NCBI GenBank assembly: GCA_018712385.1
Contig: DVHC01000065.1
Location: 1-33,422, forward strand
DNA from: Candidatus Onthousia excrementipullorum
GTDB taxonomy: Bacteria > Bacillota_I > Bacilli_A > RF39 > UBA660
Direction of reading: 5' to 3'
Length of the DNA stretch: 33,422 nt
Below the pieces are notes generated by a model. The model saw only the letters and a program-made list of their open reading frames with translations, had not been told where the DNA came from and did not search any database. The translations under genes and the position numbers were made by a program. This document shows positions 10,996-29,915 of this stretch, one piece after another. Within the stretch, counting starts at the first letter, position 1; each line of letters begins with the position of its first letter.

Positions 10996-11589
10996 ATGGG
11001 AAAAAAAGAAAAAATTTTAAATGTTGTAAATAGAAATGGTGGTTATATCACAGCGAAAGAGTTGACTAAATATAATATAAACAGGCGTTTTTTAACATCT
11101 TTAGTTAAAGAAAAAAAACTTATTAGAGCATCTAGAGGTTACTATATTTTTCCAAATGTTTTTTCTGATGATTTCTATATTATTCTTTCAAAATGTAAGA
11201 AAGCTGTTTTTTCGGATGCTACCGCTCTATATCTTCATAATCTTTCTGATAGAATACCTTTAGTGTATGATATTACTTTGCCTTATGGGTATGGTAATTG
11301 TTATAAAGATATGTCTAATGTATCTCTTCATTATGTAAAAAAAGAGCTTATCGATTTAGGTATGATAGAAATAGAGTCTCCTTTTGGTATGAAAATTAAA
11401 ACTTATGATATAGAAAGAACTATTTGTGATATTATAAAAAATAAAAATAAAATGGATATTGAAGTTTTTACCAAAGCTTTAAAAGAATATTCAAGATTAA
11501 AAAATAAAGATTTATTTAAATTAATGAAATATGCAAAAAAATTAAATGTAGAAAAGAAAGTAAGAGAATATATGGAGGTGTTGTTATAA
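10996..11589 (+). CDS. abiEi: AbiEi-type antitoxin (type IV toxin-antitoxin, transcriptional repressor)
   Basis: The 197-residue protein has an N-terminal winged-helix domain (about 1-55; NGGYITAKELTKYNINRRFL, then the wing with RASRGYYIF) and a C-terminal domain with SDATALYLHNLSDR and the VTLP-like DITLPYGYG, the pattern of AbiEi antitoxins. These repress the operon and block the AbiEii nucleotidyltransferase by an indirect (type IV) mechanism. The toxin frame begins at its stop codon. An inverted-repeat operator lies upstream. The ATG at 10996 is supported by AGGTGGG. AbiE modules protect against phage and stabilise mobile DNA, so this is probably acquired. Confidence 0.87.
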   Translation: MGKKEKILNVVNRNGGYITAKELTKYNINRRFLTSLVKEKKLIRASRGYYIFPNVFSDDFYIILSKCKKAVFSDATALYLHNLSDRIPLVYDITLPYGYGNCYKDMSNVSLHYVKKELIDLGMIEIESPFGMKIKTYDIERTICDIIKNKNKMDIEVFTKALKEYSRLKNKDLFKLMKYAKKLNVEKKVREYMEVLL

Positions 11590-12440
11590 TTAATCAAGAC
11601 AAATTAAAAAGTTTAGTTGCCAAAAAAGCATTAGGTAGCACATATAAATCACAAATTTACTTTCAATTATTTTATTTTGAAAGATTATTAGAAAGAATTT
11701 CTAAAAGTAAATATAAAAACTATATTATATTAAAAGGTGGATTAGTTTTAACTTCAATTATTGGTAGTGATGATAGAACTACTAAAGATATGGATGCAAC
11801 GATAAAAGGTATTCCTCTTTCTGAAAATATAATTAAAGAAATATTTAAGGAAATATTTAGCATTGATTTGGATGATGGTGTTACTTTTGAACTTATTAGT
11901 ATTAAAGATATTAGGTTAGAAGATAAGTATGGTGGTTTTAGACTAAATATTTTATCAAAATTAGGCAATAATAAAACCTATATTACAGTTGAACTAACAA
12001 CTGGTGATGAAATAACTCCTAGAGAGATAAAATTTAGTTATAATTCAATTTTTGAAGATAAAAAAATACCTATTATGGCATATAACATTGAAACGATATT
12101 AGCTGAAAAGTTTCATTCTATTATTTCAAGAGGTATTTTAAATACTCGTTTAAAAGACTTTTACGATGTTTATATGTTATTTAATTTTAAAGAAGATATT
12201 ATAGATAAAAAATTATTGGTAAAAGCAATCGAGAACACTTTTAAAAAGAGAGATACTTTAATAGATATAGATGAATTTGTTAATCTTATAGACGATTTAT
12301 ACAATAATGATTCTCTTAAAAAGCTATGGAGTGAATATCAAAATAAAAATACATATGCTAAAGGTATAGATTTTGTTGATGTAATAGATTCTGTTAAAAT
12401 AATAGTTAATATACTAGAAGAAACATTAATTACTGTTTAA
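11586..12440 (+). CDS. abiEii: AbiEii-type nucleotidyltransferase toxin, apparent ATA start
   Basis: Motifs match the AbiEii/DUF1814 family: LKGG (G51 G52), the metal-binding D-x-D (D68, D70 in TKDMD), then ETILAEKFHSI and RLKDFYDVYML in the second half. The only nearby ATG (11790) falls inside the D-x-D motif, so it cannot be the natural start. The frame is open upstream and has no ATG, GTG or TTG, but has ATA at 11586 exactly seven bases after GGAGG (11574-11578), giving (M)INQDKLKSL and 284 residues. ATT at 11589 is the alternative. The ATA overlaps the antitoxin's TAA stop. A single G-to-A change from the usual ATGA overlap would give this. It may be weakly expressed or silenced. Confidence 0.8.
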   Translation: MINQDKLKSLVAKKALGSTYKSQIYFQLFYFERLLERISKSKYKNYIILKGGLVLTSIIGSDDRTTKDMDATIKGIPLSENIIKEIFKEIFSIDLDDGVTFELISIKDIRLEDKYGGFRLNILSKLGNNKTYITVELTTGDEITPREIKFSYNSIFEDKKIPIMAYNIETILAEKFHSIISRGILNTRLKDFYDVYMLFNFKEDIIDKKLLVKAIENTFKKRDTLIDIDEFVNLIDDLYNNDSLKKLWSEYQNKNTYAKGIDFVDVIDSVKIIVNILEETLITV

Positions 12441-16766: not shown

Positions 16767-17208
16767 ATAAACGATTTAATAGAAAAAGAAGACATTAAAA
16801 TAGAAAATATGATATACGAGATTAGGGGTAAGCAAGTAATGTTAGATAGTGATTTGGCTAAACTCTATGAGTGTGCTAATGGAACTAAAACAATTAATCA
16901 AGCAGTTAAAAGACATATTAATAGATTTCCAGAGAGGTTTATGTTTAGGTTAACAGAAGAAGAAGTAAAGATATTTTCAAGGTCCCAACTTGGGACCTTG
17001 AAGGGCAGAGGACATAATATTAAATACTTACCATATGCTTTTACAGAAGAAGGAGTGGCAATGCTTGCTACTGTACTTAGAACACCTGTTGCTGAAGAAG
17101 TGAGTATAAGAATAATGGATGCTTTTGTGGCTAGGAAAGAAATGTTTTGCTATTACCAAGATAGAAAGTAAAGAGCTTTTAGATAGCTTGTTAGATAAGT
17201 TAGGATAA
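16767..17208 (+). pseudogene. Decayed ORF6N-domain gene (internal deletion and frameshift)
   Basis: This copy is closely related to the gene at 17331. Its ORF6N DNA-binding domain is intact from the MIYEIRGKQVMLDSDLAKLY segment (encoded from 16809) to IMDAFVA. Then the sequence jumps to the last ~20 codons of the intact copy, removing roughly 490 bp, and the join is out of frame: translation stops at 17171 as ...MFCYYQDRK. The original tail, CFAITKIESKELLDSLLDKL, is still legible in another frame up to 17208. The start is taken as ATA at 16767, eight bases after GGAGG and aligned with NDLI of the intact copy; the first ATG (16809) has no ribosome site. A truncated DNA-binding protein of about 120-135 residues could still be made. 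Confidence 0.8.
16976..17002. repeat. Perfect palindrome inside the first ORF6N copy
   Basis: TTCAAGGTCCCAA (16976-16988), one central C, then TTGGGACCTTGAA (16990-17002): a 13-bp perfect inverted repeat in coding sequence, translating as SRSQLGTLK. Confidence 0.97.
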
Positions 17209-17234
17209 CAACTTTAATTATAAAATATTGAAAG

Positions 17235-17258
17235 TCACAAATTGTGATATCCAATAAT
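17235..17258. repeat. Left 24-bp terminal inverted repeat of the ORF6N cassette
   Basis: The 24 bases are the exact reverse complement of 18218-18241. The outer 13 bases (TCACAAATTGTGA) are themselves a 6-bp palindrome around one base. The inner end supplies the first base of a TATAAT at 17258-17263 that may be the -10 box of the gene. Confidence 0.92.
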
Positions 17259-17278
17259 ATAATAGAAAACGGTTAATG

Positions 17279-17305
17279 TTCAAGGTTTCAAGTTGAAACT
17301 TTGAA
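17279..17305. promoter_or_regulatory. Palindromic candidate operator before the intact ORF6N gene
   Basis: TTCAAGGTTTCAA, central G, TTGAAACTTTGAA: a 13-bp inverted repeat with one mismatch. Its core AAGGTTTCAA-N-TTGAAAC is the same as that of the palindrome inside the gene (17543-17575). It lies between the possible -10 (17258-17263) and the ribosome site, where repressor binding would block expression. Confidence 0.65.
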
Positions 17306-17330
17306 AGAAAATATATAGTTGTAGGAGGTT

Positions 17331-18203
17331 ATGGTTATAAACGATTTAATAGTAAAAGAAAATAAAAAAATAGAGGACATGATATATGAAATAAGAGGAA
17401 AACAAGTGATGTTAGATAGTGATTTGGCTAAACTCTATGAATGTGCTAATGGAACTAAAACAATTAATTTAGCAGTTAAAAGACATATTAATAGATTTCC
17501 AGAAAGGTTTATGTTTCAGTTAACAAAAGATGAATATTATGAAATTCTAAGGTTTCAATTTGAAACCTTAGAATTAGAACAAGGGAAATATTCTAAATAT
17601 TTGCCATATGTTTTTACAGAGCAAGGAGTTGCAATGCTTGCTACTGTACTTAGAACACCTGTTGCCGAAGAAGTAAGTATAAGAATAATGGATGCCTTTG
17701 TGGCAATGAGAAAATACATATCAACTAATCTAATTGAACAAAAGTATATAAATGACTTAGTATTAAAAGATTCAAAAAGAATAGATTTATTAGAAGATGC
17801 ATTTTCTAGCTTTAAAGAACAAAATAATCATATATTCTTTGAAGGACAGATTTATGATGCTTATTCTCTTATGATAAAGATATTTGATAAAGCTAAAGAA
17901 AGTATTATTATAATAGATAATTATATAGATAAGAATATTTTAGACATATTATCTAAGACTAATAAGCAAGTAACATTAATTACTAATAAATACAAAATAC
18001 AAGACTATGAAAAGTATAAAGAACAATATAATAATGTTACTTTAGTAGTTAATAACTCTTTTCATGATAGATTTATTATTTTAGATAAGAAAGATTTATA
18101 TCACTCTGGTGCTAGTTTTAAAGATTTAGGAAATAAGTGTTTTGCTATTACTAAGATAGAAAGTAAAGAAATTTTAGATAGTTTGTTAGATAAGTTAGAA
18201 TAA
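17331..18203 (+). CDS. ORF6N-domain DNA-binding protein with PLD-like C-terminal domain
   Basis: The 290-residue protein has an N-terminal ORF6N domain (about 15-130: IYEIRGKQVMLDSDLAKLYE, FTEQGVAMLATVLRT, IRIMDAFVAMRK), a DNA-binding module found in phage and mobile-element genes. A helical linker follows, then a domain (about 155-290) with IIIIDNYID, FHDRFIILD and GASFKDLGNK, resembling one half of a phospholipase D/HKD fold; enzymatic activity is not shown. ATG 17331 is only two bases after GGAGG and is ATA in the sister copy, so initiation may be at ATA 17337, eight bases after GGAGG, giving (M)NDLIVKENKKIED. The gene holds a 16-bp perfect palindrome and sits inside 24-bp inverted repeats, suggesting a self-contained mobile or self-regulated cassette. 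Confidence 0.85.
   Translation: MVINDLIVKENKKIEDMIYEIRGKQVMLDSDLAKLYECANGTKTINLAVKRHINRFPERFMFQLTKDEYYEILRFQFETLELEQGKYSKYLPYVFTEQGVAMLATVLRTPVAEEVSIRIMDAFVAMRKYISTNLIEQKYINDLVLKDSKRIDLLEDAFSSFKEQNNHIFFEGQIYDAYSLMIKIFDKAKESIIIIDNYIDKNILDILSKTNKQVTLITNKYKIQDYEKYKEQYNNVTLVVNNSFHDRFIILDKKDLYHSGASFKDLGNKCFAITKIESKEILDSLLDKLE
17543..17575. repeat. 16-bp perfect palindrome inside the intact ORF6N gene
   Basis: AATTCTAAGGTTTCAA (17543-17558), one central T, then TTGAAACCTTAGAATT (17560-17575). It encodes the ILRFQFETLEL segment of the ORF6N domain. Confidence 0.97.
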
Positions 18204-28370: not shown

Positions 28371-28414
28371 TTGACAAGTATATTGTCAGTTACTTTATCC
28401 TATGATAATATAAT
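28371..28414 (+). promoter_or_regulatory. Promoter and candidate operator of the DUF3800 gene
   Basis: TTGACA (28371-28376) is followed at once by a TGACA-N7-TGTCA inverted repeat (28372-28388), and TATAAT lies at 28409-28414. TTGTCA at 28383-28388 is the -35 better placed for that TATAAT (20 bases). Two overlapping promoters or a repressor site on the -35 are possible. Confidence 0.45.
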
Positions 28415-28441: not shown

Positions 28442-29161
28442 ATGAAAGAATATAATGTTTATATTGATGAGAGTGGAGATGAAGGAATAAATAAAGGTTC
28501 TAAATACTTCATATTGACTGCTATTATTGTAGAAAAGACTAAAGATTTAGAAAGTTCTAGAGTTGTAGATAAAATAAAAGAAAATTTAGAAATGGATAAA
28601 AAATCTCAATTACACTGGAAATTATTAAAAGGATTACCTAATAAAAGAATGATAATGTCTTTAGTAAGTACACTTGATATTAAGATTATAAACGTAATTA
28701 TTGATACTAGATGTATTAAAGTTATACCATCAAATAATATTTATAATTACTTTAGTGGTTATTTATATGAGAGAATATGTTGGTATATGAATGAAGTTAA
28801 TGGAATTGCAAATATAAATATAAGTTCAAGAGGAAATTTATCTAAAGCTAAATTAAGTGCTTATTTAAATAATAAAAATCATAAGAAGTTTAATATTGAT
28901 ACAAGTAGAATAAAAGAAATAAAAATAATACCTAATGTAAGAAAAAAATTATTACAATTAGCAGATTGCTGTTGTAGTGCTTTGTTTCAAGCATTAAAGT
29001 ATAACAATAAAACTTGTTATGAATATATAAATAAAATAAAGGACAAATTATATATAAAGAACAATAATTTATTAAGTTATGGATTAAAACTAGTACCTAG
29101 TAATAGTAAAGCAATTGAATTATATAATCTGATAGAATATTTAAACAAAGAAAAAAAGTGA
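28442..29161 (+). CDS. DUF3800 domain protein
   Basis: The 239-residue protein starts with YIDESGDEG (residues 6-14), the acidic signature of the DUF3800 family, and has the C-terminal LLQLADCCCSALFQAL segment with the conserved Ala-Asp. Together these are the putative RNase H-like catalytic positions. DUF3800 proteins are frequent in phage, plasmid and defence regions, but their biochemical role is not settled. GAGGAGG precedes the ATG and an inverted repeat overlaps the promoter. The 3' end overlaps, on the other strand, the terminator of a small RNA. Confidence 0.85.
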   Translation: MKEYNVYIDESGDEGINKGSKYFILTAIIVEKTKDLESSRVVDKIKENLEMDKKSQLHWKLLKGLPNKRMIMSLVSTLDIKIINVIIDTRCIKVIPSNNIYNYFSGYLYERICWYMNEVNGIANINISSRGNLSKAKLSAYLNNKNHKKFNIDTSRIKEIKIIPNVRKKLLQLADCCCSALFQALKYNNKTCYEYINKIKDKLYIKNNNLLSYGLKLVPSNSKAIELYNLIEYLNKEKK

Positions 29162-29251
29162 GCTTTCCCCTGACTAAAGGAACCCACAAGGCAAGCTTGC
29201 TGGTATGTATTAAACACACCCTTTAGTAACTCAGCGAACTACTCACTCACT
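29151..29251 (-). ncRNA. Unidentified ~100-nt structured RNA
   Basis: A consensus minus-strand promoter (29286-29258) places the 5' end near 29251. The transcript can close with GTGAG...CTCAC next to a TTTTTTT tract (29157-29151). Inside, ACTAAAG pairs with CTTTAGT (7 bp) and encloses two hairpins: GGTGTGT/ACATACC (7 bp, loop UUAAU, one G-U) and GCAAG/CUUGU. No ORF with a ribosome site is present. It lacks the conserved SRP RNA, tmRNA, RNase P and 6S signatures, so no class is assigned. Its terminator overlaps the end of the DUF3800 gene in antisense. Confidence 0.6.
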
Positions 29252-29257
29252 GACTAA

Positions 29258-29286
29258 ATAATATCATAAAATATATTATCTGTCAA
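29258..29286 (-). promoter_or_regulatory. Consensus promoter of the small RNA
   Basis: On the minus strand TTGACA (29286-29281), a 17-base spacer and TATTAT (29263-29258): one of the best sigma-A promoters in the window, with no coding gene downstream. Confidence 0.75.
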
Positions 29287-29390: not shown

Positions 29391-29915
29391 ATGGAAGAAG
29401 ATAAATATAAAACATTAGAATCATTAAGAGAAACAAAAAAATTTCTGAATGGCATAAAAGGATACTTAAAAGAGGATGAAGAATCTGTAGAACTTGATAC
29501 TCTTGCCACTATCGCTCTTTTAAGAAGACCAGAACTTGCTAAAAGAGGTGATGAGGCTTTAGGTGACAAATATGGTGATATAAATTTTACCGATTACATA
29601 TATGGCCGTGTTAATTCCACTTTAAATAGTAATTTAATAGTTAGACATACTATGGAGATGGAAGCTTTAATACGTTGCGTCGAAGCACATAATAAAGGTA
29701 TGAATAGTAATTATATTTATAAAAAGTACCTTGGCTTTGAAAACAGTGAAGATAGTCATGATAATTTATATCTTAACAAGAGGTTAGATGTTGTGCAAAA
29801 ACAGTTTGTCGCTATGCATTATGATGTTGCTTTTAAAGAAAATACTTTTTCACTTATGGTAGGAGATGAATTTTTAAAAACAGCGCAGGTAGTAGTAAAA
29901 AAGACTGTTAAGTAG
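29391..29915 (+). CDS. Hypothetical protein, 174 residues
   Basis: No family is recognised. The ATG at 29391 follows AAAGGAAGAAG at good distance, so the upstream in-frame ATGs (from 29346) are rejected. The protein starts MEEDKYKTLESLRETKKFL, is mostly helical by composition, acidic in the first third, and has HTMEMEALIRCVEAHNKG in the middle. It is soluble, without signal peptide. It has its own promoter and terminator and so is independent of the smc gene that follows. Confidence 0.75.
   Translation: MEEDKYKTLESLRETKKFLNGIKGYLKEDEESVELDTLATIALLRRPELAKRGDEALGDKYGDINFTDYIYGRVNSTLNSNLIVRHTMEMEALIRCVEAHNKGMNSNYIYKKYLGFENSEDSHDNLYLNKRLDVVQKQFVAMHYDVAFKENTFSLMVGDEFLKTAQVVVKKTVK

What the first reader, a model, noticed from the sequence alone, without database searches (positions are those of the whole stretch)
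29151..29286. Unclassified ~100-nt RNA with consensus promoter, multi-branch fold and terminator next to DUF3800
The minus strand has TTGACA-17-TATTAT, then a sequence with at least four helices (outer GTGAG/CTCAC, ACTAAAG/CTTTAGT, and two hairpins inside) and a T tract, but no gene. The order of pairings includes a G-U pair that keeps a helix. It is convergent with DUF3800, a family common in defence and mobile regions, and its terminator overlaps that gene's 3' end in antisense.
Basis: partly seen in the sequence, partly recalled or inferred. Interest (0 to 1): 0.65.

Follow-up and report, generated by a model that had tools for sequence, protein, structure and literature searches.

The report
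DUF3800-VII RNA beside its nuclease gene
The small structured RNA is real but belongs to a catalogued family, DUF3800-VII, that sits beside the gene for an RNase H-like protein; what the pair does is still unknown, and in this survey the protein gene was never found intact without the RNA.

Summary
The minus strand 29286..29152 carries a near-consensus promoter and a ~96-nt multi-branch RNA whose T tract overlaps the 3' end of a convergent DUF3800 gene. It is not unclassified: it matches Rfam RF02967 (DUF3800-VII) end to end, 72.8 bits against a gathering score of 36.2. The structure covaries in relatives.

New here:
- All 37 intact DUF3800 genes of this clade that were checked have the RNA, convergent. 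A home-made covariance model found it beside ten distant relatives where Rfam's cut-off caught one.
- RNAs without an intact gene are common; the reverse was not seen.
- DUF3800 models as an RNase HII-like fold.
- The pair lies near tRNA genes more often than flank density predicts, always on the tRNA 3' side.
- The RNA has no guide-length variable segment.
- In four distinct distant relatives the gene has a conserved extra C in its catalytic motif, creating a very rare CGG codon; selection on both sides suggests a programmed +1 frameshift.

Best mechanism (inferred): the RNA binds the nuclease as an obligate partner, most likely holding it in check. Sequence alone does not separate antitoxin, cofactor and antisense roles.

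The parts
29152..29247 (-). DUF3800-VII RNA (Rfam RF02967), multi-branch structured sRNA
   Evidence: 72.8 bits vs gathering 36.2, E 1.7e-13, model 1-90/90; fold z -3.2; covariation in 22 relatives
29258..29286 (-). sigma-70-type promoter of the RNA, TTGACA-17-TATTAT, with an inverted repeat between and around the two hexamers
   Evidence: conserved in all aligned loci; matched arms beat permuted arms
29152..29158 (-). T tract ending the RNA, directly after the outer helix
   Evidence: conserved in most intact loci
28442..29161 (+). DUF3800 gene (239 aa), RNase HII-like fold, convergent with the RNA; its stop codon lies inside the base of the RNA gene
   Evidence: PF12686 E 1.7e-15; AlphaFold model pTM 0.78, VIA Z 11.5 to RNase H2
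28383..28411 (+). candidate promoter of the DUF3800 gene, TTGTCA-17-TAATAT
   Evidence: 9 of 12 matches; weak, consensus match only; present in near relatives L032-L034

Best explanation
This is a member of the known RNA family DUF3800-VII. The RNA is made from its own strong promoter, folds into a four-helix structure closed by the helix that also serves its terminator, and most likely binds the RNase HII-like DUF3800 protein encoded on the other strand, forming an obligate RNA-protein pair. The most likely role of the RNA in that pair is to hold the nuclease in check until some trigger, as a folded RNA antitoxin would. Shown: family identity, conserved structure, conserved promoter, invariable pairing with intact genes, fold of the protein. 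Inferred: binding, inhibition, trigger and biological role.
For: Identity. Structure under selection: 95.2% of cells paired, 10 pairs changed on both sides, slid controls 31-52%. Obligate partnership: 37 of 37 intact genes of the clade carry the RNA, convergent, 3' ends between 26 nt overlapping and 8 nt apart, down to ~40% protein identity. Protein is an RNase H-type nuclease fold closest to RNase HII, as reported for DUF3800 by Altae-Tran et al. (PMC10910872). Unpaired stretches such as GUUCGC and UGUGG are almost invariant, as expected of a protein-binding RNA. The RNA outlives the gene: 13 of 23 RNA-bearing genomes from the Rfam searches have no intact neighbour, while no intact gene lacks the RNA.
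Against: No binding, toxicity or expression data. The one-sided loss is also what chance gives: the gene is ~6 times the larger target, and with ~11 independent losses all hitting the gene the probability is about 0.16. Convergent orientation and single-copy RNA differ from known type III toxin-antitoxin pairs. D88 of the presumed active site is Asn in the distant clade.
Confidence: 0.45

Rival explanations
1. The RNA is an activating cofactor or scaffold: DUF3800 is inactive alone and the RNA-protein complex is the working nuclease, for instance in defence against phages or plasmids.
For: Explains the 37 of 37 pairing equally well. DUF3800 proteins are attached to some Cas12a2/Cas13-type loci as presumed accessory nucleases. 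Pair lies in variable sites near tRNA genes, as mobile defence genes often do.
Against: No variable guide-length segment in the RNA (longest run of columns under 70% conserved is 4), so a programmable guide is unlikely. No PADLOC hit for the protein. RNAs persist after the gene is broken.
Confidence: 0.3
2. The RNA acts by base pairing as an antisense regulator of the DUF3800 mRNA (type I toxin-antitoxin-like), through the overlapping convergent 3' ends.
For: Convergent genes whose 3' ends overlap by 1-26 nt in 35 of 36 measured intact loci or lie within 8 nt; no obvious terminator for the gene before the RNA, so its mRNA may run through the complement of the RNA.
Against: Antisense pairing alone does not require compensatory changes in the RNA's own helices, which are plain, nor invariant unpaired bases.
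Confidence: 0.15
3. The RNA is only a structured bidirectional terminator or 3' UTR element of the gene.
For: It ends exactly at the gene's 3' end.
Against: It has its own conserved -35/-10 promoter pointing at the gene, a far larger and more conserved fold than a terminator needs, and the T tract serves the minus strand only.
Confidence: 0.05

Closest known systems
Rfam RF02967, DUF3800-VII RNA (candidate RNA of Weinberg et al. 2017, known to me from memory; paper not held)
   Same: Whole-length model match, secondary structure, neighbouring DUF3800 gene
   Different: Low-GC members from small-genome gut Bacilli; about ten distant clostridial members fall below or near Rfam's cut-off and were found only with a model built here
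Type III toxin-antitoxin systems (ToxIN, CptIN, TenpIN)
   Same: A folded small RNA paired with an endoribonuclease gene; would work alike if the RNA inhibits DUF3800
   Different: Type III antitoxin RNAs are tandem repeats upstream of the toxin on the same strand (PMC8860590 abstract, for the repeats; orientation from memory); here one copy, convergent, different protein fold
RNase HII / HIII
   Same: Fold of the DUF3800 model, Z 9-11.5 over 150-170 residues; a DE pair in the first strand (DESGD vs DEAGRG, the latter from memory)
   Different: 6-14% identity; D88 replaced by N in distant members; linked to a dedicated RNA
DUF3800 accessory proteins of Cas12a2-type CRISPR loci
   Same: Same protein family and RNase H-type fold
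   Different: No CRISPR-Cas gene recognised in the window ORFs scanned; RNA partner is DUF3800-VII

Membership tests
Rfam RF02967 DUF3800-VII | Covariance-model score above the curated gathering score | tested here: met
   72.8 vs 36.2 bits, model positions 1-90 of 90
Rfam RF02967 DUF3800-VII | Consensus secondary structure kept by compensatory change | tested here: met
   10 of 24 pairs with changes on both sides, 0 of 500 shuffles as high
Rfam RF02967 DUF3800-VII | Neighbouring DUF3800 gene | tested here: met
   PF12686 at 28442-29161, E 1.7e-15
Rfam RF02967 DUF3800-VII | Expressed as an RNA | not testable with these tools
   No transcript data; promoter is predicted only
Type III toxin-antitoxin system | Antitoxin RNA of tandem repeats | tested here: not met
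   Only a low-score AT-rich repeat inside the gene; no repeat in the RNA
Type III toxin-antitoxin system | RNA encoded upstream of the toxin on the same strand | tested here: not met
   RNA is convergent, downstream of the gene
Type III toxin-antitoxin system | Protein toxic alone, neutralised by the RNA | not testable with these tools
   Needs expression experiment
RNA-guided nuclease (TnpB/IscB-like) | Variable guide segment next to a conserved scaffold | tested here: not met
   Longest run of columns under 70% conserved is 4; four genomes carry an identical RNA
RNase HII | RNase HII fold | tested here: met
   Foldseek E 5.9e-5 to 1eke; VIA Z 11.5, rmsd 4.0, 161 residues to 3puf; model mean pLDDT 72.5
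RNase HII | Four acidic active-site residues D-E-D-D | tested here: inconclusive
   D9, E10, D88, D175 invariant in 7 near relatives, but D88 is N in the distant clade; no residue-level superposition was made

The most novel reading that the evidence does not exclude
DUF3800 and DUF3800-VII RNA form a new kind of two-part RNA-protein system in which a folded, convergently encoded RNA restrains an RNase HII-like nuclease, and in one clostridial lineage the nuclease is made only through a programmed +1 frameshift at a rare CGG codon inside its active-site motif.
Probability: 0.25. Interest if true: 0.75.

Novelty: new member of a known kind. Interest (0 to 1): 0.38.

Why it matters
The RNA itself needs only annotation. 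What would matter is the function: DUF3800 RNAs have been catalogued without a known role, and the strict pairing shown here makes the DUF3800-VII pair small and simple to test. The conserved frameshift in relatives, if confirmed, would show that production of this nuclease is under special translational control.

Tried and rejected
(1) tRNA, tmRNA or another Rfam family: only RF02967 passes; PutA thermometer, mir-507 and STnc350 are far below cut-off. (2) Phage or plasmid cassette: no viral contig relative; plasmid and phage matches are 25-27% identical. (3) Integration by a tyrosine recombinase at tRNA 3' ends: no copy of the tRNA 3' end was found beyond the cassette in nine loci, so the tRNA link is kept as an observation only. 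(4) One-sided loss as proof of an antitoxin: rejected as proof because target size alone gives about 0.16. (5) A guide RNA: rejected, no variable segment. (6) Known solved relatives by sequence: none. (7) L051 was first counted as an intact gene; it is broken after 47 codons and is not in the 37. (8) Held papers give no function for DUF3800 RNAs; the original paper is not held.

Full report
What is there. The minus strand from 29286 to 29152 holds a promoter TTGACA-17-TATTAT, a 96-nt structured sequence at 29247..29152, and a T tract. Rfam names it at once: RF02967, DUF3800-VII, 72.8 bits against a curated cut-off of 36.2, whole model matched. The nearest competitors in a permissive search are far below their cut-offs. 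The single-sequence fold is -35.5 kcal/mol, z -3.2. The neighbour at 28442-29161 (+) is PF12686, DUF3800. The gene's stop codon (29159-29161) lies within the base of the RNA gene.

Where it occurs. The window's genome has one copy. In its genus 8 of 35 genomes have a match, 7 over the cut-off; in a sample of its order 16 of 288; in a sample of its phylum only the window's own genome among 392. So the element is patchy and shared mostly among small-genome gut Bacilli, with a second group in records titled Clostridia or Clostridium.

The structure is under selection. On 22 aligned RNAs the Rfam helices (24 pairs counted, first hairpin mostly left out because its length varies) keep standard pairs in 95.2% of cells, with 10 pairs changed on both sides; sliding the partner by 1 to 3 columns leaves 31 to 52%. 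RNAalifold alone finds 27 pairs, 9 with double changes. The first hairpin, listed unaligned, keeps complementary arms with different sequences (GGGTGTG..CATACC, GGGTATA..TATACC, GGGGATTG..CATTCCC). Unpaired positions such as GTTCGC and TGTGG are nearly invariant. The longest run of weakly conserved columns is four, so there is no guide-like variable segment.

The RNA and the gene. A scan of 84,980 species genomes with an alignment of the window clade found 40 loci. Of the 27 at 57-100% identity (L032-L058), all have the Rfam RNA; one of them, L051, has a broken gene, which leaves 26 intact. Ten further loci at 41-45% identity (L060-L069) have the RNA by a model built here from 22 sequences, one of which, L066, comes from that group; Rfam's cut-off caught only L066. 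One more intact locus, L137, was found later. Total 37 of 37 intact genes, counting five that carry the +1 offset described below. In the 36 measured intact loci the RNA 3' end lies between 26 nt inside the gene and 8 nt beyond it. More distant DUF3800 proteins (L088-L099, about a quarter identical in the profile search) have no such RNA. L059 is a truncated gene near a contig end without RNA.

The converse is different. Of 23 RNA-bearing genomes, 10 have an intact neighbour; in the others the gene is broken (G003, G193, G263), a remnant (G062, G186) or absent (G011, G020, G025, G219, G232, G244, G307), with G244 holding an unrelated reading frame there (G013 was searched only as a control). 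I count G119, G129, G141, G171, G230, G245, G305, G000, G007, G009 and G029 as intact, which are 11 genomes, so 12 lack an intact neighbour. Three orphans (G011, G020, G025) share one rearrangement: the catalase-cotJB segment is inverted next to the RNA and DUF3800 is gone. G015 and G369 hold further RNAs without an intact gene. This fits an RNA that is harmless alone and a protein that is not, but the gene is the larger target and chance alone gives roughly 0.16, so it is suggestive only.

The protein. AlphaFold2 on seven sequences gives pTM 0.78, mean pLDDT 72.5. Foldseek's best solved match is RNase HII 1eke, E 5.9e-5; VIA-align puts RNase H2/HII/HIII chains in the first 18 places, Z 8.8-11.5, RNase HI near 7. 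This agrees with the RNase H-type fold reported for DUF3800 in Cas12-linked systems (PMC10910872) and in the CRISPR classification update (PMC12669027). D9, E10, D88 and D175 are invariant in near relatives; D88 is Asn in distant ones.

Promoter dyad. Between and around the -35 and -10 hexamers lies an inverted repeat whose sequence differs among loci while the arms stay matched (AATGTTA..TAACATT, AATGCTA..TAGCATT, AGTACC..GGTACT). In 18 distinct intact promoters own arms score 7.72 against 6.51 +- 0.20 when arms are exchanged between loci. Relatedness of loci inflates that test, and the -10 itself contributes, so an operator is a suggestion.

tRNA neighbours. In 29 loci with the RNA, tRNA clusters lie within 500 bp of the pair in 9 and beyond that in 5, although the near zone is under a fifth of the flanking sequence (p 1.8e-4; two of the nine are near-identical loci). 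Every tRNA seen in these and in the distant and orphan loci points its 3' end to the pair. No att-like repeat was found. Insertion after tRNA genes may simply be the tolerated place.

Frameshift in relatives. In L065-L069 (four distinct sequences) the gene reads GAY GAR AGY C GGA GAT GAR: an extra C makes the upstream frame run into CGG AGA TGA, and the rest of the protein is in +1. Downstream the reading frame is whole and dN/dS between these loci is 0.05-0.14 at dS 0.77-1.31, apart from the near-identical pair L068/L069; upstream the nine codons EYNVYIDES differ only at silent positions. CGG is used 0.13-0.40 times per thousand codons in long stretches of three of these genomes. The best reading is a programmed +1 frameshift at a starved codon; start at the internal ATG (MKVGDEG) is the rival and does not explain the upstream conservation. 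The window's own gene has no extra base.

Mechanism and confidence. Family identity is near certain (0.97). That the RNA and protein act together is likely (about 0.75). That the RNA restrains the protein rather than activating it is a modest preference (about 0.45 against 0.3), because the RNA has the clearly stronger predicted promoter and survives loss of the gene. None of binding, activity or expression is shown.

Noticed in passing
L065:2991-3008, L066:2991-3008, L067:2991-3008, L068:887-904, L069:2997-3014: Conserved extra C in the DUF3800 catalytic motif (GAY GAR AGY C GGA GAT GA), giving CGG AGA TGA in the upstream frame; both sides under purifying selection and CGG very rare: probable programmed +1 frameshift.
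   Followed up: partly
window 29258-29286 and homologous promoters: Inverted repeat in the RNA promoter whose arms differ among loci but stay matched; possible operator.
   Followed up: partly
L040, L042, L043, L044, L048, L049, L051, L056, L058 and others: tRNA genes close to the DUF3800-RNA pair, all with the 3' end towards it, no att-like repeat.
   Followed up: partly
L005, L006, L008: RNA kept without DUF3800, with the catalase-cotJB segment inverted relative to the window.
   Followed up: partly
window 10996-12440: AbiEi/AbiEii type IV toxin-antitoxin pair; the listed AbiEii frame (216 aa) matches only from about position 75 of a 294-position model, so its start may be broken.
   Followed up: no
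window 16809-18203: Two adjacent ORF6N-domain genes with near-identical N-termini, matching the PADLOC candidate PDC-S05; the first is short (120 aa).
   Followed up: no
window 29391-29915 and L002-L004: ORF next to the RNA promoter with no Pfam family whose C-terminal end differs between close relatives while its start is nearly constant.
   Followed up: no
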